A stretch of DNA of 64,000 nucleotides from Marinobacter sp. S6332. GTDB taxonomy: Bacteria > Pseudomonadota > Gammaproteobacteria > Pseudomonadales > Oleiphilaceae. Below the pieces are notes generated by a model. That model was not told the origin of the DNA. It saw only the letters and a program-made list of their open reading frames with translations, and did not search any database. The position numbers were made by a program, and so were the translations under genes. Shown here piece after piece: positions 5,901-21,770 of the stretch. The stretch lies in the NCBI RefSeq assembly GCF_023016045.1, contig NZ_JALKAP010000006.1:191909-255908 (forward strand). The letters run 5' to 3'. Numbering within the stretch: position 1 is the stretch's first letter; each line of letters begins with the position of its first letter.

Positions 5901-6031
5901 GCGCTATCGCCGGAGGCCTGGCATTTGCCACCATTCTGACACTGCTGTTAACACCGGCGATGCTGGTGTTGGGTGAGCGAGTGGGGCAGGCTGTTCGTAA
6001 GATGTTTCGTCGCACACAATCAGTGCAGTGA
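2945..6031 (+). CDS. RND efflux transporter permease (HAE/AcrB superfamily)
   Basis: Inner-membrane proton-driven export pump of 1028 aa, the normal size for a 12-helix RND protein with two large periplasmic loops. The N-terminus IDRSRTTLLTLFFLTLGG is the first membrane helix. The loop region contains the porter motifs (PEDAERLLVRPMEQEL, DTALQDVREKV). Transmembrane helix 4 carries GMLVDGAIVVSE where AcrB has the proton-relay pair DD, so the second Asp is Gly here. Helix 10 reads GIVVNNNIILID, with Asn in place of the AcrB Lys. It follows its adaptor by 5 bases and ends before a terminator-like hairpin. Substrate cannot be read from sequence; drug or solvent export is the family default. Confidence 0.9.
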   Translation: MRALIFAAIDRSRTTLLTLFFLTLGGIAAFQAIPREANPDVTIPMIYISMTLEGISPEDAERLLVRPMEQELRSLEGVKEMRGTASEGHASVMLEFDAGFDPDTALQDVREKVDTARSKLPREADEPRVNEINVSLFPVLSIGLSGPLSERELITVARGLQDAIEAIPEVLEVEIGGDREDLLEIIVDPQVLEGYGIDFDQLGSLVTRNNQLVAAGSLDTGNGRMTLKVPGVIENIEDVMSMPIKVDGDTVVTFGDVAMLQRTFKDPTGFARINGEPAVVLEVSKRSGANIIETVAEVRELIARAQPQLPEALDVRYIMDQSDEVRDLLSDLLNNVLTAIVLVIIVIIATMGPRSALLVGLTIPGAFLTGILVIWTMGLTLNIVVLFSLILVAGMLVDGAIVVSELADRNLSEGHTVKGAWAEAASRMAWPIIASTATTLAVFVPLLFWPGVVGEFMKFLPITVIICLIASLAMALVFLPVLGGVSGGRRARTVSENGRVMQGYRKVLSTLLSYPGFTLVGVLGVVVLVYVAYGKFNHGIEFFPSVEPDSAQVQIRARGDLSVIERDAIVRKVEGRLQGMPEVKAVYARSMLSTSTQMAPDVIGVLQFQFTDWFTRRPASAILDDFLARTKDIPGIELEFREQENGPAGGKPIELQISSRDSTKLNGYVDQIEDQMRAQGGFVDIEDDRSLPGIEWRLEVDREAAARFGTDVLSIGSAVRLVTNGLVLATFRPEDVRDEVDIAVRVPNNWRELDHLQRQTINTARGQVPLSQFLDLQPGHKTGSIARVDGQRTITIKSDIQPGEQVDSLLKGLQAKLPETPEGVSVKFAGENEDQQQASNFLISAFLIAIAMMLLILVTQFNSLYQSFLILSAIVLSTAGVLLGLLLNGQSFGIVMVGMGIIALAGIVVNNNIILIDTYNQMKEDGMEAYEAALETSCLRLRPVLLTAVTTVLGLMPMVLSVNVDLLTPSLGLGAPSTQWWAQLSSAIAGGLAFATILTLLLTPAMLVLGERVGQAVRKMFRRTQSVQ

Positions 6032-6039
6032 TGTAGATC

Positions 6040-6073
6040 AACCGCATTATGAGTGCGGTTTGTAGCTTTTTTT
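6040..6073 (+). terminator. Rho-independent terminator after the RND pair
   Basis: A 7-bp perfect stem AACCGCA/TGCGGTT (6040-6046 with 6054-6060) is followed, after a few bases, by a run of seven T. It sits 9 bases after the pump stop codon. Confidence 0.6.
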
Positions 6074-6182
6074 GTTGATTTGCGCCAATTAGTACGATCA
6101 GAAGGTAAAAACCTGAACCTTAGGTCATACTTCTAGCACAACGTTAAGTTACATATAGGTCTGCGTAAAATCGGAGCTGGTT

Positions 6183-8075
6183 TTGCAAAAACATTTTGGG
6201 CTGTTGTGCATATTCATTTTACTGTTTATGTCCGTGTCGGCATTCTCTGCTGATCAGGAGGCCATGTGGGGAAAACACTCTACGCGCATGGAATTGGCCA
6301 GCTACGTCGACTATTGGCAAGAGCCAGCAGTAGGGCGCGCAGGTATTTCCGAAATTACTCGTTTGGGTAGCGATGTCTGGACTCGTAATGGCAGTGATAG
6401 CGTCAATCTCGGCTATGGTCAGCACGTTTACTGGTTTCGGATGGGGCTGGAGAATGTCACTGGCAGCGAAGCCAATACGTTTCTTGAGATAGGTTATCCG
6501 GTCCTCGACCACATCGAAGTATATATCAACCCGAGCCAACAGTTAGAAGAGCCGCTGATTTTGGGCGATAAACAGCCCTTTTATGACAGACCAATTTTGC
6601 ATCGCAATTTTGTTGTACCCATCACTCTTGCTCCCAAAGAGAAAACTACGATTTACCTTCGTGTAAAAACCACCAGCTCTATGCAGGTTCCACTGACGCT
6701 GTGGAATCAAAATGCATTCTATTCAGTAGAGCAGGCTCGGAGCATGTTTGAAGGGCTTTATTACGGCATTGTTCTGGTCATGATTCTGTATAACCTGTTT
6801 GTGTTTCTAGCAGTCGGGGAGCGTAGTTTCCTTCATTATGTTGGGTTCATGGTTGCTATGCCGCTATTCCTCTCCAGCTTCCACGGAGTGGCGTTTCAGT
6901 ATCTTTGGCCGGAAGCAACCTGGTGGAATGACCAATCTATTATCGTTTTTCTCAGCTTAGTGGTGCTGTTCGGAGGAATCTTCACGATCAAATTTATCAA
7001 CGTTACCCGAGAAAACCACCCTGTGCTAAACCCGTGGACGCAGGGTATTGTAATAGCCGCAGGGTTGATGGCTGTCAGTGGCTTTTTGATACCTTATAAA
7101 TACCTAATTCTACCAACAATATTAGTGGCCTCTGTCGGCTGCTCAACCTTGTTGTTACTGAGTATTGTCCGGTGGGTTAAAAAAGATCCGGCCGCCCGGT
7201 ACTACACGCTGGCTTGGGTGTTCGTGCTGTCTGGCGGGCTTGTACTGGCGCTCAGCAAGTTTACGCTGCTGCCCAGCAACCTGCTGACGGAGAATGCTAC
7301 TCAGGTTGGCTCTGCCCTTGGTGTTATCTTGCTGTCCATTGCCCTGGCAGATCGTCTAAACAAAGACAAGAAGCGAGTTTTTGAGGCCCAACAAGGGCTT
7401 TTGCGCGAGGAGCGCAAGGCTCGGGTTGCTCAGGCGAAAACTTTGGAAATACAACGAGAAGCCAACGCGTTGCTTGAAGAGAGAGTGCAAGAGCGTACTC
7501 GCGATCTTGAGCGGTTGAACTCGCAACTGTTGGAGTTGAGCTCAACTGACGCGTTAACAGAGCTTAAAAATCGCGGTCACTTTGACAGAGAGTTTCAGTC
7601 TGCGGTGGTGCATGCCTACCGGCACCAAGAGCCCCTTTCACTTTTGTTACTCGACATTGATTACTTCAAACAATTTAACGATAACCATGGCCACTTGGTG
7701 GGAGATGATTGCCTGAAGATGGTCGCTCAATGTGTGCGGCAGCTGGTAACGCGGCCTCAGGATCTGGCTGCACGTTATGGTGGTGAAGAGTTTGTTGTAC
7801 TGCTGCCCAACACGCCACATAAAGGCGCCGTTGACGTTGCGGAGCGAATTCGTAAAGCCGTTGAAAAGATGGCTTTTCCGCTGTCGGGGCAAACACTTCA
7901 TCTTACGATCAGTGTGGGTGTGTGTTCAGAGCTACCTGCCAGCGCAGACGCCACTGAAGCGCTTTTCAGCAAAGCAGATGAAGCTTTGTATCAGGCCAAA
8001 GCCAACGGGCGTAATTGTGTGGTGGCTTGGTCCGCGTCCAGCGAGGACGCAGCCACAGCTAACGTTCAGGCCTAG
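6183..8075 (+). CDS. Diguanylate cyclase with 7TMR-DISM sensor module
   Basis: Membrane protein of 630 aa that makes cyclic di-GMP. A TTG start at 6183 follows GGAG at a 6-7 base distance and gives a clean signal peptide (FGLLCIFILLFMSVSAFSA). The periplasmic part (about residues 30-160) has the look of 7TMR-DISMED2, a predicted carbohydrate-binding-like sensor. Seven hydrophobic segments follow at about 185-400, then a coiled coil (about 400-455, EERKARVAQAKTLEIQREAN) and a GGDEF domain. The active-site motif is GGEEF at 533-537, and the product-inhibition site RxxD (RPQD) lies exactly five residues before it, so the enzyme should be feedback regulated. It is monocistronic, tail to tail with the amidase gene (the two stop codons overlap). 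Confidence 0.92.
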   Translation: MQKHFGLLCIFILLFMSVSAFSADQEAMWGKHSTRMELASYVDYWQEPAVGRAGISEITRLGSDVWTRNGSDSVNLGYGQHVYWFRMGLENVTGSEANTFLEIGYPVLDHIEVYINPSQQLEEPLILGDKQPFYDRPILHRNFVVPITLAPKEKTTIYLRVKTTSSMQVPLTLWNQNAFYSVEQARSMFEGLYYGIVLVMILYNLFVFLAVGERSFLHYVGFMVAMPLFLSSFHGVAFQYLWPEATWWNDQSIIVFLSLVVLFGGIFTIKFINVTRENHPVLNPWTQGIVIAAGLMAVSGFLIPYKYLILPTILVASVGCSTLLLLSIVRWVKKDPAARYYTLAWVFVLSGGLVLALSKFTLLPSNLLTENATQVGSALGVILLSIALADRLNKDKKRVFEAQQGLLREERKARVAQAKTLEIQREANALLEERVQERTRDLERLNSQLLELSSTDALTELKNRGHFDREFQSAVVHAYRHQEPLSLLLLDIDYFKQFNDNHGHLVGDDCLKMVAQCVRQLVTRPQDLAARYGGEEFVVLLPNTPHKGAVDVAERIRKAVEKMAFPLSGQTLHLTISVGVCSELPASADATEALFSKADEALYQAKANGRNCVVAWSASSEDAATANVQA

Positions 8076-16924: not shown

Positions 16925-18676
16925 ATGCCAGCTTTCCCCGCAACCCCCGAGCCAGTTGAACCTTCGTTACTGGATATCTCGGCAACCGTCAGCGAATATC
17001 TCCAACGAAGCGATTGGCGAGTCAATGCCAATGCCAATCAGGGCTACTCTCTGGGTGGCCTGATTCTGAACACTGCCGGAAAAGTCATCGCCAACTATTG
17101 GCTTAATGATGTCTATACACAAGCCATCGGTCAGGCGCACCGTGAGGCAGACCTTCATATACACGATCTAGATATGTTGAGTGGCTACTGTGCTGGCTGG
17201 TCGCTGCGTACCTTATTGCATGAAGGCCTTAACGGCGTGCCCGGTAAGGTGGAGTCAGCACCCCCGAAGCACTTATCGAGCGCCATCGGCCAGATGGTAA
17301 ACTTCTTGGGTACGCTGCAAAACGAATGGGCCGGAGCTCAAGCCTTCAGCTCTTTCGATACCTACTTGGCACCTTTTATCCGCAAGGATAATCTGGATTA
17401 CGAAACAGTACGCCAGTGCATTCAAGAGTTTGTTTACAACCTCAACGTGCCTTCACGCTGGGGCACCCAAACGCCCTTTACCAACATCACCTTTGATTGG
17501 GTTTGCCCGGAGGATCTACGAGAGCAGATACCGGTCATTGCCGGTGAAGAGATGCCTTTTAGCTACGGTGATCTGCAGTTAGAAATGGATCTGATCAACC
17601 GAGCCTACATTGAGGTGATGGCTGCTGGAGACAGTAAAAATCGGGTATTCACTTTCCCGATTCCTACCTACAACATTACTCGGGATTTTGACTGGGAATC
17701 TGAAAATGCCCAGCGCCTGTTTGAAATGACAGCCCGATACGGTCTGCCGTACTTTCAAAATTTCCTCAACTCAGATCTTGAACCCAGCATGGTTCGCTCT
17801 ATGTGTTGCCGCCTGCAACTGGACCTGAGAGAACTTCTAAAGCGTGGCAACGGTTTGTTTGGTTCAGCAGAACAAACGGGATCTCTCGGCGTGGTAACGA
17901 TTAACTGTGCCCGGCTGGGGTATTTATACAAAGGCCGCAAGCAGGCGCTATATGCCCGGTTAGATGAACTGATGGCGTTGGCACGGGATAGTCTGGAAAC
18001 AAAGCGCGAGACTATCAGTCAGCATATGGCCGAGGGGTTACTGCCCTATAGTCAACGTTATTTGGGTACTTTACGGAATCATTTTTCTACCATTGGAGTG
18101 AATGGTCTAAACGAAATGATTCGAAATTATTCGGGCGACCGCGAGGACATTGCTACCGAGTGGGGCAGAGAGTTTGCGCTGGAATTGTTGGATCACGTTC
18201 GGGATCGAATGAAGGAGTTTCAAGAACAGACCGGCAACCTTTACAACCTTGAAGCAACCCCGGCAGAAGGCACCACCTATCGCTTTGCCAAGGAAGACCA
18301 AAAACGCTTTCCGAACATTCTGCAGGCGGGAACGCATGATGCACCTTATTACACCAATTCCAGTCAACTGCCCGTAGGTTTTACTGATGACCCGTTTGAA
18401 GCGCTGAACCTGCAGGATGAGCTGCAAACACGCTACACCGGCGGCACGGTTTTACACCTCTATATGCGCGAACGTATCAGTGATGCGGCCACCTGTGGCC
18501 GGTTTGTTCGGCGTGTCTTGGAAAATTATCGACTGCCGTATATCACGGTAACGCCCACATTCTCCATTTGCCCTGTGCATGGCTATCTCAACGGCGAGCA
18601 CGAGTTCTGTCCCAAATGTGATGAGTTGCTGATGGCGGGCAAGAATACGCAAATGGCTGCTGCAGCTATTGCCTGA
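16925..18676 (+). CDS. nrdD: Anaerobic ribonucleoside-triphosphate reductase core, lacking the glycyl-radical tail
   Basis: Class III (oxygen-sensitive) ribonucleotide reductase catalytic chain, 583 aa. It contains the HIHDLDMLSGYCAGWSLRTL stretch, the substrate-site region with the conserved Cys pair in MCCRLQLDL (C294/C295), and the zinc-site segment SICPVHGYLNGEHEFCPKC near the end. There is no N-terminal ATP-cone, so allosteric dATP shut-off through that domain is not expected. The chain stops at ...NTQMAAAAIA right after the zinc motif and has no RVxGY glycyl-radical loop. That loop is encoded in a separate small gene at 18769-18915 in a different frame. The start has AGGAG at 7 bases and lies under the B12 riboswitch. 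nrdG follows in the same operon. Confidence 0.9.
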   Translation: MPAFPATPEPVEPSLLDISATVSEYLQRSDWRVNANANQGYSLGGLILNTAGKVIANYWLNDVYTQAIGQAHREADLHIHDLDMLSGYCAGWSLRTLLHEGLNGVPGKVESAPPKHLSSAIGQMVNFLGTLQNEWAGAQAFSSFDTYLAPFIRKDNLDYETVRQCIQEFVYNLNVPSRWGTQTPFTNITFDWVCPEDLREQIPVIAGEEMPFSYGDLQLEMDLINRAYIEVMAAGDSKNRVFTFPIPTYNITRDFDWESENAQRLFEMTARYGLPYFQNFLNSDLEPSMVRSMCCRLQLDLRELLKRGNGLFGSAEQTGSLGVVTINCARLGYLYKGRKQALYARLDELMALARDSLETKRETISQHMAEGLLPYSQRYLGTLRNHFSTIGVNGLNEMIRNYSGDREDIATEWGREFALELLDHVRDRMKEFQEQTGNLYNLEATPAEGTTYRFAKEDQKRFPNILQAGTHDAPYYTNSSQLPVGFTDDPFEALNLQDELQTRYTGGTVLHLYMRERISDAATCGRFVRRVLENYRLPYITVTPTFSICPVHGYLNGEHEFCPKCDELLMAGKNTQMAAAAIA

Positions 18677-18680
18677 ATTT

Positions 18681-18734
18681 CGGAGCACCGCTCCGGTATA
18701 GACGGTGGGTCGCTACGAGCAAAGCAACCTACCG
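18681..18734 (+). other. Two hairpins between nrdD and the glycyl-radical gene
   Basis: The 92-base spacer contains CGGAGC-ACC-GCTCCG (18681-18695, perfect 6-bp stem with a 3-base loop) and an 8-bp stem with one G-U pair between 18703-18710 and 18727-18734. Neither is followed by a T run, so neither looks like a terminator. They could stabilise or process the mRNA, or position ribosomes. Confidence 0.55.
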
Positions 18735-18768
18735 AATTTCCCAGAGAAGTAAATGTAAAGGAGATGTT

Positions 18769-18915
18769 ATGGAAAACCAGAAGCTACCCAACGAGAATCA
18801 ACGCCAACGCTGTGAAGTATGGACGCGGGTTATGGGCTACCACCGCCCTGTTTCTGCCTTTAACAAAGGCAAGCAATCAGAACACCACGAACGTACTCAT
18901 TTTAGGGAGCGTTGA
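18769..18915 (+). CDS. Free-standing glycyl-radical domain of NrdD (48 aa)
   Basis: A 48-codon gene whose product is almost nothing but the class III RNR glycyl-radical region: CEVWTRVMGYHRPVSAFNKG, with the candidate radical glycine G23 in RVMGYHRP. In ordinary NrdD this segment is the C-terminal tail of the large chain; here the large chain (16925-18676) ends before it. The gene has a near-ideal ribosome site (AAAGGAG, 6 bases before ATG 18769), better than that of nrdD. Its stop is 1 base from the start of nrdG, so the order is core, radical peptide, activase. The peptide frame is -1 relative to nrdD and is open back to 18625, so a -1 frameshift fusion is a formal alternative, but I see no slippery heptamer. 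The idea that it works in trans like GrcA (YfiD) does for pyruvate formate-lyase is inference. Confidence 0.88.
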   Translation: MENQKLPNENQRQRCEVWTRVMGYHRPVSAFNKGKQSEHHERTHFRER

Positions 18916-18916
18916 T

Positions 18917-19621
18917 ATGCTTGCGGATAACTTGGTAATAGGCGGTATGACAGCCTTTTCTACCGTTGATTATCCGCAACATCTGGCGACAACCCTGTTT
19001 CTACAGGGTTGTCCCTGGCGTTGCCATTATTGCCACAATCCGCACTTCATTCCGTTAAAACCGGTGGATGGCGCACCTACATGGCAAAGGGTTTGTAGCC
19101 ACCTTAAGCGGCGCAAAGGGTTGCTAGATGCCGTGGTATTCAGCGGGGGAGAGCCCACGATTCAGAAAGCACTGTTACCCGCTCTGCAGCAAACCCGGGA
19201 TATGGGGTTTCGGAACGGGCTTCACACGGGGGCGCCCAGTGTAAAATCGCTCCGCCCGTTATTGCCATGGCTGGATTGGGTAGGCTTGGATATCAAAGCA
19301 CTGCCTTCAGGGTACCAACCCGTAACTACTTGTAGCCGCTCAGGTATAGATAGCTGGGCCGCCATTGATGCGTTGATGGACTCAGAGGTTAGTTTTGAAT
19401 GCCGAATGACGTGGCATAGCGCTCTGCACAGTATTGAGCAGGTGTTGGAAATCAGCGAACAATTGGCAAACAGGGGGGTAAGGCGGTTCTCAGTACAAGT
19501 GGCCCGTACCGCACAAATGCTGAATCCAACGTTGGGGGAGAGCTATATCGCGACACCTGACATCGAAAAACTCCGGTATGCGTTAGCGGCCATATCAGAG
19601 GAGTTTGATGTGCGGGCTTGA
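18917..19621 (+). CDS. nrdG: Anaerobic RNR-activating radical SAM protein
   Basis: Radical SAM activase that installs the glycyl radical of class III ribonucleotide reductase. The cluster-binding motif CxxxCxxC is seen as GCPWRCHYCHNP, about 30 residues from the chosen start, and the SAM-contact motif GGEPT in VVFSGGEPTIQ follows. I place the start at ATG 18917 (MLADNLVIGGMTAFSTVDYP), preceded by AGGGAG at 7 bases. A longer frame starting at 18764 overlaps the glycyl-radical gene entirely and has no family similarity there. 234 aa fits the Pseudomonas-type NrdG. Confidence 0.92.
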   Translation: MLADNLVIGGMTAFSTVDYPQHLATTLFLQGCPWRCHYCHNPHFIPLKPVDGAPTWQRVCSHLKRRKGLLDAVVFSGGEPTIQKALLPALQQTRDMGFRNGLHTGAPSVKSLRPLLPWLDWVGLDIKALPSGYQPVTTCSRSGIDSWAAIDALMDSEVSFECRMTWHSALHSIEQVLEISEQLANRGVRRFSVQVARTAQMLNPTLGESYIATPDIEKLRYALAAISEEFDVRA

Positions 19622-19662: not shown

Positions 19663-21729
19663 TTAAAAATTACTCTCAAGTCTTGCAACAAGACCTCTGC
19701 CAGGTGACAGAATGTCACCGTCAGTAAGGTGAGCTCGATACTGTTTGTCCAGCAGGTTGTTGCCTTCTAAGGTGACTTTGAGGTTGTTCAAATTGCCTAT
19801 TGAATCAAAGTTCCACCCTAGCGTTATATCCACGGTCGCGTAGCCGGGCGTGGTGGTTTCTGTATTGTTAGAGAAGGTATCTGCAGTTCTATCCTGTTCT
19901 GCTACCGCACGAACCTGGCCGTGCCAATTGAATCCCGGGCGGGATTGCTGGCCTACGCCAAGGGTCAATTCTGGAGCGGGCATCTGGTATAACGGCTCAT
20001 TGTCCTGTTTGTTTTCACCTCGAAGCCAGGTGAGGCTGCCGTCGATATCGATAGATGGTGCTGTGCTGACCATTGCCTCTAGAGGCATGATGAAACCAGC
20101 TTCCGCCCCGTAAATTGTTACTTCATCCAGATTTTCCGTTTGTTTTATCGGCAGGTTGTTGGCCGGGTTGTTGGTACCCGTTACTCGGCCCGCGATGTAG
20201 TCATCAATTCGGGTATAAAATACCGCAAGCTGATACTCACCAAAGCGACCACGGCCCTTGAGGCCAATCTCTGCACTGGTGGATTTTTCCGGGTCGAGTT
20301 GGGGGTTCCCTTTGTGGAAATAGCCGTCGCCACGGGATGCGTCTTCAAAACGCTCCCGCATATCTGGGGCTCGGTAGGCTGTCCCTACTGAGATGAAGGG
20401 GTTGACCATAGCGCTCAGGTTGTAGATGGCGCCGGTTGACCAGGAAAGGGTTTCGGCACTGCTTTCCAAGCCGGTCGTTCGCGCGCCCGGGCCGTTGCCC
20501 ACTATTCGGGCATCGCCAGTAACTTTGTCATATCGGGCACCGAATTGAATGTTCCAGTTGCCTATCGCTATATCGTCTTGAACAAACACGCCTTGGCTTT
20601 GTATTTCCCCATCTCGAAATGGTGAGTTGGACATGGCTGTGTTCGACATCGGTGGGTTGTAGGTAAAACGTGCAGGGTCTGCCGTCATCTCCCAGACCTC
20701 CAGCCCAACAGTAACCAGATGGGCATTGCCAAGGGGCATTCTATACTGCGCTTTTGCACCATCGGTATCAAAGCTGACGTCGTTCCACACCTGATTTCTA
20801 TCTTTAAAATCCCAAAATGCTCTTATCTGCCGCTCAACATTCTGTTGATAAATACTGGCTTCCAGTGTTCCTGGCCCGATTGAGCCTTCGTAGCCTAGCT
20901 CAGTCAGGGTTCTGGTCTGTTTGGGGGAGTGAATTATGAGTGTGCCATTACCGCCAGGACCCGCTTTTGCCGAGCCGGGGTACCAGACATCACGATCCTC
21001 GTGTTTTTGCAGGTTCAGGGTCAGCTTTTGATCATCGCTGAGCCTATAGGCGTACTTGGCGAGAAAGGACTCCGAGCGGTAACCGCTTTTATCGACATTA
21101 CCGGCTGGGGTTTCGTAGTCGTCTACATCTTTAACGGCTGCTCCGAGAACCAGACCATGATCTTTGCTTGAGAGTTTAACTAGGGCTCCGCCAGCAAGGC
21201 TGCTGTCTACCGTTCCCGTGCTACCAGAGAGTCGGCCGTGAACCTCTTCAGTCTCTGAGAATGTCGCTTCCGGAGTGCGCAGGTTTATAGCGCCACCAAG
21301 GGCCCCTGTACCATGCTGAACAGAGCCAGGCCCTTTAACTACCTCAACACTATCCAACAGACTCATGGCCGCAAGAGACGCAATGGCACCTTGAGGTTGG
21401 GCTGAATTAAGTCGTACGCCGTCTATCAGCATAACAACGCTTTCTTTTTTTAACCCACGAATGACCGGATTACCGCCCCAGGCGCCACCGTCGCCCTGAA
21501 CGGCAAGGCCAGGTTTTCCTCTAAACAAATCACCAGCGGTTTTCGCTGCGGCTACTTCATCAGTCGCCAGTTTTTCTACAGTGCTGGCCGTTTCGAGAGT
21601 GTCAGACTCGTATCCTTTCGCCGTGACGACGAGTTCATTTAGTTGTGCTGGCTGTGAGAATGCTGGTACCGCGAAGGTTGTAGTGGATGACACTAAAGCA
21701 ATGGCAATGCTCAATCGGCTGGGGGTCAT
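19663..21729 (-). CDS. TonB-dependent outer-membrane receptor, haem/haemoprotein type
   Basis: Outer-membrane gated channel of about 688 aa. ATG 21729 (MTPSRLSIAIALV) follows GGAG at 6 bases and begins a signal peptide cleaved near AFSQP. The TonB box/plug region is LNELVVTAKG then GGAWGGNPVIRGLKKESVVMLIDGVRLN. The barrel ends in Phe (ARLESNF), as usual for Omp85-assembled proteins. Around residue 450 the sequence runs YRAP...GYFHKGNPQLDPE, close to the FRAP-His-NPNL signature of haem and haemoglobin receptors (HmuR/HemR type). It is divergent from an ABC importer plus nnrS, and Fur-like palindromes lie between them. A B12 role is less likely since no BtuCD or B12 switch governs it. Confidence 0.85.
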   Translation of the reverse strand: MTPSRLSIAIALVSSTTTFAVPAFSQPAQLNELVVTAKGYESDTLETASTVEKLATDEVAAAKTAGDLFRGKPGLAVQGDGGAWGGNPVIRGLKKESVVMLIDGVRLNSAQPQGAIASLAAMSLLDSVEVVKGPGSVQHGTGALGGAINLRTPEATFSETEEVHGRLSGSTGTVDSSLAGGALVKLSSKDHGLVLGAAVKDVDDYETPAGNVDKSGYRSESFLAKYAYRLSDDQKLTLNLQKHEDRDVWYPGSAKAGPGGNGTLIIHSPKQTRTLTELGYEGSIGPGTLEASIYQQNVERQIRAFWDFKDRNQVWNDVSFDTDGAKAQYRMPLGNAHLVTVGLEVWEMTADPARFTYNPPMSNTAMSNSPFRDGEIQSQGVFVQDDIAIGNWNIQFGARYDKVTGDARIVGNGPGARTTGLESSAETLSWSTGAIYNLSAMVNPFISVGTAYRAPDMRERFEDASRGDGYFHKGNPQLDPEKSTSAEIGLKGRGRFGEYQLAVFYTRIDDYIAGRVTGTNNPANNLPIKQTENLDEVTIYGAEAGFIMPLEAMVSTAPSIDIDGSLTWLRGENKQDNEPLYQMPAPELTLGVGQQSRPGFNWHGQVRAVAEQDRTADTFSNNTETTTPGYATVDITLGWNFDSIGNLNNLKVTLEGNNLLDKQYRAHLTDGDILSPGRGLVARLESNF

Positions 21730-21770
21730 GAAAGCTCCGAGGATGATGTGTGTAATACGCAAATAAAAAC

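What the first reader, a model, noticed from the sequence alone, without database searches (positions are those of the whole stretch)
16925..19621. Class III ribonucleotide reductase split: glycyl-radical domain in its own 48-codon gene
Seen: the NrdD chain ends after its zinc-site Cys motif and has no RVxGY loop. The loop (CEVWTRVMGYHRPV, G23) is encoded by a separate gene at 18769-18915 with a very strong ribosome site, placed between nrdD and nrdG. Known: in NrdD the radical glycine is normally in the same chain, and E. coli GrcA (YfiD) is a free glycyl-radical domain that rescues pyruvate formate-lyase. Inference: the radical subunit works in trans with the core and is made in excess, perhaps allowing rapid replacement after oxygen cleavage. 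I do not know whether this split is already described.
Basis: partly seen in the sequence, partly recalled or inferred. Interest (0 to 1): 0.85.

Follow-up and report, generated by a model that had tools for sequence, protein, structure and literature searches.

The report
Two-piece anaerobic ribonucleotide reductase
This bacterium builds its oxygen-free DNA-precursor enzyme from two separate proteins, with the radical-carrying tip made as its own tiny gene; many relatives do the same, and many phages carry that tiny gene alone, perhaps as a spare part.

Summary
NrdD (583 aa, 16925-18676) ends after its zinc motif; its glycyl radical domain (GRD) is a separate 48-aa gene (18769-18915, radical Gly23) before nrdG2 (18917-19621). 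The GRD is a separate ORF in 80 of the 80 best-matching titled loci, in all three frames relative to nrdD, and the split occurs in alpha-, beta- and gammaproteobacteria and on a Campylobacterota plasmid. In some genomes core and GRD lie 9.5 kb apart or on different contigs. Another NrdD subtype appears to have split independently. pN/pS of the GRD is 0.05-0.07.

In 50 records searched whole, the GRD is the only NRDD match (50 of 50) and NrdG2 is absent (0 of 50). This resembles phage T4's spare part for pyruvate formate-lyase.

RefSeq-derived annotation already calls the small gene 'nrdD'. Ten literature searches found no description of the split or of phage GRDs; the 1999 Cupriavidus nrdDG paper was not held. 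Nothing was tested biochemically.

The parts
16925..18676 (+). nrdD core: class III ribonucleotide reductase catalytic barrel without glycyl radical domain, 583 aa; lacks about 100 N-terminal residues that most relatives have (room for an ATP cone)
   Evidence: Pfam NRDD 2-528/562 E 1.7e-174; NCBIfam NF006126 1047.8 bits, profile 97-649 of 684 matched from residue 14; in 73 of 80 loci the open frame has more than 80 codons before the match. The name ATP cone is inference
17801..17812 (+). finger-loop motif M293-C294-C295-R296 (expected thiyl radical site)
   Evidence: sequence, alignment columns; MCCR motif class described in PMC9669993 (passages)
18569..18619 (+). zinc-site motif C-x2-H ... 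C-x2-C near the end of the core chain
   Evidence: sequence; conserved in alignment; the zinc role is recalled, not tested
18680..18734 (+). two predicted RNA hairpins in the nrdD-GRD gap, role unknown
   Evidence: fold -29.9 kcal/mol, z -2.5; of 3 relatives folded one has z -3.7 and two -0.6
18758..18763 (+). Shine-Dalgarno AAGGAG of the GRD gene
   Evidence: -8.7 kcal/mol
18769..18915 (+). stand-alone glycyl radical domain (GRD) gene, 48 aa
   Evidence: Pfam NRDD 530-562 E 1.4e-9; conserved across loci; pN/pS 0.053 over 36 Marinobacter-group pairs
18811..18813 (+). Cys15 of the GRD, 8 residues before the radical glycine, typical of stand-alone GRDs
   Evidence: 16 of 16 rows of A1; 78 of 79 readable viral GRDs; 4 of 78 readable viral single-chain NrdDs. 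Exception: in L300, L307 and L321 the Cys stands two residues later
18835..18837 (+). codon GGC of the radical glycine (Gly23, in RVMGY)
   Evidence: invariant in A1 and in 79 of 79 readable viral GRDs
18917..19621 (+). nrdG2, radical-SAM activase
   Evidence: TIGR02495 NrdG2 161 bits, over its cut-off 131.15

Best explanation
A two-polypeptide class III ribonucleotide reductase. The 583-aa core holds the catalytic barrel, finger-loop cysteines and zinc motif. The 48-aa GRD protein binds it non-covalently, with Gly23 in the place of the C-terminal loop of ordinary NrdD. NrdG2 installs the radical on Gly23, which then oxidises a finger-loop cysteine to start reduction. Shown: two conserved genes under selection, and viral copies of one of them. 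Predicted: the docking. Inferred: activation and radical transfer in trans. Probable benefit (about even odds): cheap renewal, because oxygen cuts a glycyl radical protein at its glycine, so only a small subunit is lost. Viral contigs that carry the GRD alone probably supply a fresh radical subunit to the host's core and use the host's activase (about 0.6). The confidence given here is for the two-chain enzyme.
For: Domain split. GRD in a separate ORF in 80 of 80 best-matching titled loci (80 kept of 531), in frames 0/1/2 in 14/24/42, nrdG2 found in 80. In G653 GRD and nrdG2 lie together 9.5 kb upstream of the core match; core and GRD on different contigs in the draft genomes G851, G976, G998. 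pN/pS 0.053 and 0.071, uncorrected, from non-independent pairs. GRD ribosome site of -5 kcal/mol or lower in 88% of 50 loci against 18% of random positions. Single-chain versions in Acidiphilium and Actinomyces, inside or beside the split group. Apparent independent split in another NrdD subtype. AlphaFold2 of core + read-through gap + GRD of the Halopseudomonas relative (87% identical core): pLDDT 88.7, pTM 0.88; best structural match Prevotella NrdD 8p2s_B, Z 35.8, 555 aligned, rmsd 2.7, first to last aligned model residue 11-663, chain 85-735. Viral GRDs: Gly in 79 of 79 readable; GRD the only NRDD match in 50 of 50 records, NrdG2 in 0 of 50.
Against: No biochemistry. The structure model is one chain joined by a translated non-coding gap, and its alignment holds natural single-chain homologues, so the docking is partly built in; a first model on a shallow alignment was poor (pLDDT 64.3). 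Stoichiometry and excess synthesis are untested, and in the window nrdG's ribosome site equals the GRD's. The renewal benefit is an analogy with GrcA/YfiD. Viral records may be fragments without completeness estimate; other NrdG subfamilies than NrdG2 were not searched in them. Different contigs in draft genomes may reflect assembly or foreign contigs. INPHARED gave no clear stand-alone GRD in two searches.
Confidence: 0.85

Rival explanations
1. Sequencing error or decayed gene: the true protein is one chain, or the operon is dead.
For: In 14 of 80 loci the GRD is in the same frame as the core, interrupted by one or more stop codons, and single-chain NrdD is common elsewhere.
Against: Separate ORF in 80 of 80 loci, three frames, 10-455 nt from core stop to GRD match; low pN/pS; unlinked GRDs; own ribosome sites.
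Confidence: 0.01
2. One chain is still made by recoding (stop read-through or frameshift), with little free GRD.
For: Same-frame stop in 14 of 80 loci.
Against: 66 of 80 have the GRD out of frame with the core and gaps vary widely; the GRD has its own start and ribosome site; GRD genes exist away from, or without, a core.
Confidence: 0.03
3. The split brings no oxygen benefit; it is neutral gene fission, or merely eases NrdG2 access to the glycine.
For: No functional data. Single-chain and split forms coexist in the same groups and the state changed at least 5 times on the tree.
Against: Long conservation, an apparent second origin, the GRD ribosome site across loci, and viral contigs carrying the GRD alone suggest a use for free GRD.
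Confidence: 0.3
4. Viral GRDs are decoys that block or compete with the host enzyme rather than helping it.
For: A free domain could occupy the core or NrdG2, and no viral core is needed.
Against: Radical glycine in 79 of 79 and Cys15 in 78 of 79 readable viral GRDs, as in bacterial GRDs.
Confidence: 0.1

Closest known systems
Single-chain class III RNR (NrdD; NF006126/PRK08270, Pfam NRDD)
   Same: Core and GRD together cover nearly the whole profile; nrdG2 beside it; MCCR finger loop; zinc motif; predicted fold matches solved NrdDs.
   Different: The radical glycine is on a separate polypeptide; Cys15 before the glycine is usual in free GRDs and rare (4 of 78) in viral single-chain NrdDs.
GrcA/YfiD of E. 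coli and Y06I of phage T4 (spare part proteins for pyruvate formate-lyase)
   Same: Free glycyl radical domain, also carried by phages; activated by the partner enzyme's radical-SAM activase (for YfiD/Y06I per PMC8683613 passages; inferred here).
   Different: This GRD matches only NRDD in Pfam at E up to 1. In the bacterial operon the core has no GRD of its own, so the free GRD is a required subunit, not only a repair part.
Split class II RNR NrdJa/NrdJb of Pseudomonas aeruginosa
   Same: RNR made as two polypeptides (PMC4520616, passages).
   Different: Other class, no glycyl radical, different split.
Phage nrdD genes split by introns, inteins, homing endonucleases or unknown causes
   Same: nrdD in pieces (PMC3653736, 12 of 22 places shown).
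   Different: The passages describe interruptions and fragmentation; none is said to isolate the GRD. The last fragment of Aeromonas phage phiAS4 nrdD was not identified there and I did not check it.

Membership tests
Class III ribonucleotide reductase (NrdD) | NRDD catalytic barrel over the curated cut-off | tested here: met
   582 bits against 26.2
Class III ribonucleotide reductase (NrdD) | finger-loop cysteine motif | tested here: met
   MCCR at residues 293-296
Class III ribonucleotide reductase (NrdD) | glycyl radical loop present in the operon | tested here: met
   GRD 37.6 bits against 26.2, Gly23
Class III ribonucleotide reductase (NrdD) | glycyl radical loop on the same chain as the barrel | tested here: not met
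   separate ORF in another frame; hence a two-chain variant, not an ordinary NrdD
Class III ribonucleotide reductase (NrdD) | adjacent radical-SAM activase | tested here: met
   TIGR02495 161 bits
Class III ribonucleotide reductase (NrdD) | reduces ribonucleotides anaerobically with a glycyl radical | not testable with these tools
   no assay; nrdDG of Cupriavidus H16, which is split, is stated to be essential for complete denitrification in PMC2864759 (passage)
Autonomous glycyl radical cofactor (GrcA/YfiD) | free glycyl radical domain | tested here: met
Autonomous glycyl radical cofactor (GrcA/YfiD) | PFL-type glycine radical domain sequence | tested here: not met
   only NRDD found in Pfam-A at E up to 1
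Autonomous glycyl radical cofactor (GrcA/YfiD) | restores an oxygen-cleaved partner enzyme | not testable with these tools
   needs biochemistry

The most novel reading that the evidence does not exclude
Class III ribonucleotide reductase exists widely as a two-chain enzyme with an exchangeable radical subunit, and a large family of unassigned phage genes (the two viral GRDs tried match part of PHROG 4132, 'unknown function') supplies that subunit alone to plug into host cores: it would be the first spare-part system known to me for a glycyl radical enzyme other than pyruvate formate-lyase.
Probability: 0.6. Interest if true: 0.9.

Novelty: new variant of a known kind. Interest (0 to 1): 0.8.

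Why it matters
Glycyl radical enzymes are destroyed by oxygen at the glycine. A detachable radical subunit would let bacteria that meet oxygen replace a chain of 48 residues instead of one of over 600, and gives a clean two-part system to study radical transfer between chains. PMC8683613 (passages) says that only YfiD and Y06I, both for pyruvate formate-lyase, are validated spare parts and that others may exist for other glycyl radical enzymes; these genes make that directly testable for ribonucleotide reductase, in bacteria and in phage infection. It also suggests a function for an unannotated group of phage genes.

Tried and rejected
Rejected: sequencing error, pseudogene and recoding. Cys15 as a strict marker of the split was rejected: 4 of 78 readable viral single-chain NrdDs have it, and in L300, L307 and L321 the cysteine stands two residues later. 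One clade of all split rows of the tree except viral L293, plus the Acidiphilium and Actinomyces fusions, was tested and not rejected at 0.05 (p-AU 0.0925; lnL 47.6 lower; group chosen after seeing the tree), although the free tree puts a single-chain group next to Sulfuricurvum inside it; the root is unsure because the outgroup branch is very long. An FNR/Anr-type box at up to 1 mismatch was not found near nrdD (3 matches in the window, none there, 2.3 expected by chance). The first AlphaFold model was too weak to use. Two searches of INPHARED phages gave no clear stand-alone GRD; unannotated weak hits there (MT835493.1 at 3e-4, six Lak phages at 0.6) were not followed. The independence of the second split rests on the different subtype and a single-chain member of the same genus, not on a tree.

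Counts and what was left out: the 80 titled loci are the best 80 of 531 and the 80 viral loci the best 80 of 210; both lean to close matches. Two viral GRDs (L234, L235) are cut by a contig end. Whole viral records were searched for 50 of the 80. PHROG scans of flanking ORFs covered 32 and 75 chosen ORFs, among them a few from L176 and L197, and searches list families for the set, not per locus; one search gives 10 proteins one by one, of which 3 had no match. One search scanned 10 ORFs near second or unlinked GRDs: 3 matched, all in L304; those tried in L306, L307 and L308 had no match. The tree used 76 of 227 core sequences after removal of near copies and low scorers. Ribosome-site statistics used 50 of those 76 loci (46 for nrdG, whose start codon is uncertain). 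The second AlphaFold alignment left out L341 and L382 (stops) and, without that reason, L376, L384, L399 and L457. A loose pattern gave 77 C, 1 A and one false N; the anchored count is 78 C and 1 A of 79.
Full report
1. What is there. The window holds three genes in a row on the + strand. nrdD is 583 aa (16925-18676) and matches Pfam NRDD from position 2 to 528 of 562; a 48-aa ORF (18769-18915) matches NRDD 530 to 562 and nothing else in Pfam at E up to 1; nrdG2 (18917-19621) passes the NCBIfam cut-off. The core ends after its zinc motif and has no RVMGY loop; the small ORF has it, with Gly23 at 18835-18837. The window's genome has no other NRDD match. The organism is probably a Marinobacter: the closest titled NrdD, 99% identical, is from Marinobacter salexigens.

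2. Not an artefact. Of the 80 best-matching titled loci (kept from 531), 80 have the GRD in an ORF separate from nrdD, in frame 0, 1 or 2 relative to it in 14, 24 and 42 loci; from the core stop to the start of GRD homology is 10 to 455 nt, median 59; nrdG2 follows in 80. In 391 genomes of the window's order, 61 (the window's own included) have an NRDD match; by my reading of the rows 32 are split (28 as two matches, 4 as core and GRD with an in-frame stop between) and 29 single-chain. In 289 genomes of another class, 29 have a match, 21 of them split by the same reading. The split also occurs on Cupriavidus, Sulfuricystis, Bradyrhizobium, Paracoccus and Shinella plasmids and on a Sulfuricurvum plasmid (Campylobacterota). 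The small gene is annotated 'nrdD' in most of these records, and 'hypothetical protein' in the Paracoccus one.

3. A genuine free subunit. In G653 the GRD lies 9.5 kb upstream of the core match, with nrdG2 beside the GRD. In the draft genomes G851, G976 and G998 core and GRD are on different contigs. pN/pS (uncorrected) in a conserved 34-codon stretch is 0.053 over 36 Marinobacter-group pairs and 0.071 over 78 Pseudomonas-group pairs. In 50 loci the nearest ATG of the GRD has a median anti-Shine-Dalgarno energy of -8.0 kcal/mol, against -6.85 for the core (best of several starts), -3.8 for nrdG (46 loci, best start near the match) and -2.2 at 1000 random positions. In the window GRD and nrdG are equal (-8.7 and -8.6).

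4. Fusions and a second origin. Acidiphilium cryptum pACRY03, an Acidithiobacillus plasmid and an Actinomyces oris plasmid carry core and GRD as one chain, with cores scoring 995, 995 and 952 bits against the window's. On a tree of 76 cores the split/single state needs at least 5 changes; a single clade of the main split rows plus these fusions is not rejected (p-AU 0.0925). In a different NrdD subtype (GRD RRITGYL), 5 of 9 genomes of one genus have an NRDD match: 4 are split and 1 is single-chain; in 2 of the 4 the GRD is out of frame with the core, in the other 2 a TAG stop separates them.

5. Structure. AlphaFold2 on the closest in-frame relative (Halopseudomonas pelagia, 87% identical core), read through its single stop so that core, gap and GRD form one chain, gave pLDDT 88.7 and pTM 0.88, with block means of 78-95 over the GRD. 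The model's best structural match is Prevotella copri NrdD 8p2s_B, Z 35.8, rmsd 2.7, 555 residues, first to last aligned residue 11-663 in the model and 85-735 in the chain, so the GRD appears to sit where the GRD of a natural NrdD sits. Against this: natural single-chain homologues in the alignment favour that result, an earlier shallow alignment gave pLDDT 64.3, and I had no coordinates to measure distances.

6. Phages. A scan of IMG/VR with the GRD alignment found 210 relatives; 80 were kept and examined. 79 have a readable GRD in an ORF without core homology, and no core or nrdG2 homology in the flanks held (two are cut by a contig end). The 80th (L281) is open only under genetic code 25 (UGA = Gly): its 12-kb stretch has no ORF of 150 aa or more by the standard code and ten by code 25, and the radical glycine itself is a UGA codon. 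In 50 records searched whole (10-212 kb) the GRD is the only NRDD match in 50, and 0 match NrdG2. Neighbours include portal, terminase, head, tail, holin, endolysin and integrase families. Radical glycine 79 of 79, Cys15 78 of 79, 61 distinct 36-residue stretches. The window GRD and the two viral GRDs tried match positions of about 117-155 of PHROG 4132, 'unknown function'. Second GRDs also occur in the alphaproteobacterial-class genomes G824, G840 and G985, which already have a linked one; the second one of G824 lies beside an endolysin, an integrase and a tail protein, hence probably a prophage. IMG/VR contigs also carry whole single-chain NrdDs, and one 203-kb record carries a core, an NrdG2-like ORF and a separate GRD.

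7. Mechanism. Shown: two conserved genes, and viral copies of one of them. Predicted: docking of the GRD in the barrel. Inferred: NrdG2 charges the free or docked GRD; the radical passes to C294 or C295; oxygen damage costs only the GRD; phages refresh the host enzyme. GrcA/YfiD and T4 Y06I are the working analogy: PMC8683613 (passages) says that only these two spare parts, both for pyruvate formate-lyase, have been validated and that spare parts for other glycyl radical enzymes are possible.

8. Literature. Ten searches and matched passages of 14 papers (PMC4520616, PMC4390871, PMC9531940, PMC2864759, PMC2795772, PMC4860495, PMC12338860, PMC5645315, PMC7789669, PMC11528403, PMC3653736, PMC8683613, PMC9669993, PMC3019208) showed no description of a GRD gene separate from nrdD, nor of stand-alone NrdD GRDs in phages. 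I read no paper in full, and the library lacks most subscription papers. The study of nrdDG on Cupriavidus pHG1 (Siedow et al. 1999, seen only as a citation) could not be read; the pHG1 locus is split, so its authors may have noticed.

9. Verdict. The split is real and widespread; it is a new variant of class III ribonucleotide reductase. The most interesting part lies outside the original finding: viral contigs that carry only the radical subunit.

Noticed in passing
L281 5998-6156 (IMGVR_UViG_3300028581_000001): Phage stretch readable only with genetic code 25; the radical glycine of its stand-alone GRD is encoded by UGA.
   Followed up: partly
L293 4955-9600 (IMGVR_UViG_3300033747_000022, 203 kb): Viral NrdD core with about 340 extra residues inside (possibly an intein, not tested), followed by an NrdG2-like ORF and then a separate GRD ORF.
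   Followed up: partly
L176 9553-9795 (G221:C1): Orphan GRD in a genome whose own NrdD is single-chain; it lies among ORFs that look phage-like by eye, its N-terminal part seems to be in another frame, and an ORF at 5916-6920 resembles a reverse transcriptase by eye.
   Followed up: partly
L197 5001-5210 (Allochromatium vinosum pALVIN01): GRD gene without annotated core or nrdG within 5 kb, next to a CHAP-domain protein; no core or nrdG2 homology in the stretch.
   Followed up: partly
L253 and 10 other viral loci: 11 of 79 viral GRDs have an N-terminal C-x(2,3)-C-x2-Y stretch, perhaps a piece of zinc site brought along; in two of the 50 whole records the NRDD match begins at profile position 513.
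   Followed up: partly
window 16925-18676: This NrdD lacks the N-terminal stretch present in most relatives (73 of 80 have more than 80 codons there); if that is the ATP cone, dATP shut-off may be missing.
   Followed up: partly
L075, L294, L469, L470: Apparent independent split of the GRD in another NrdD subtype within one genus.
   Followed up: yes
window 19663-21762 (-): 699-aa ORF that looks like a TonB-dependent outer-membrane receptor by eye, not tested.
   Followed up: no
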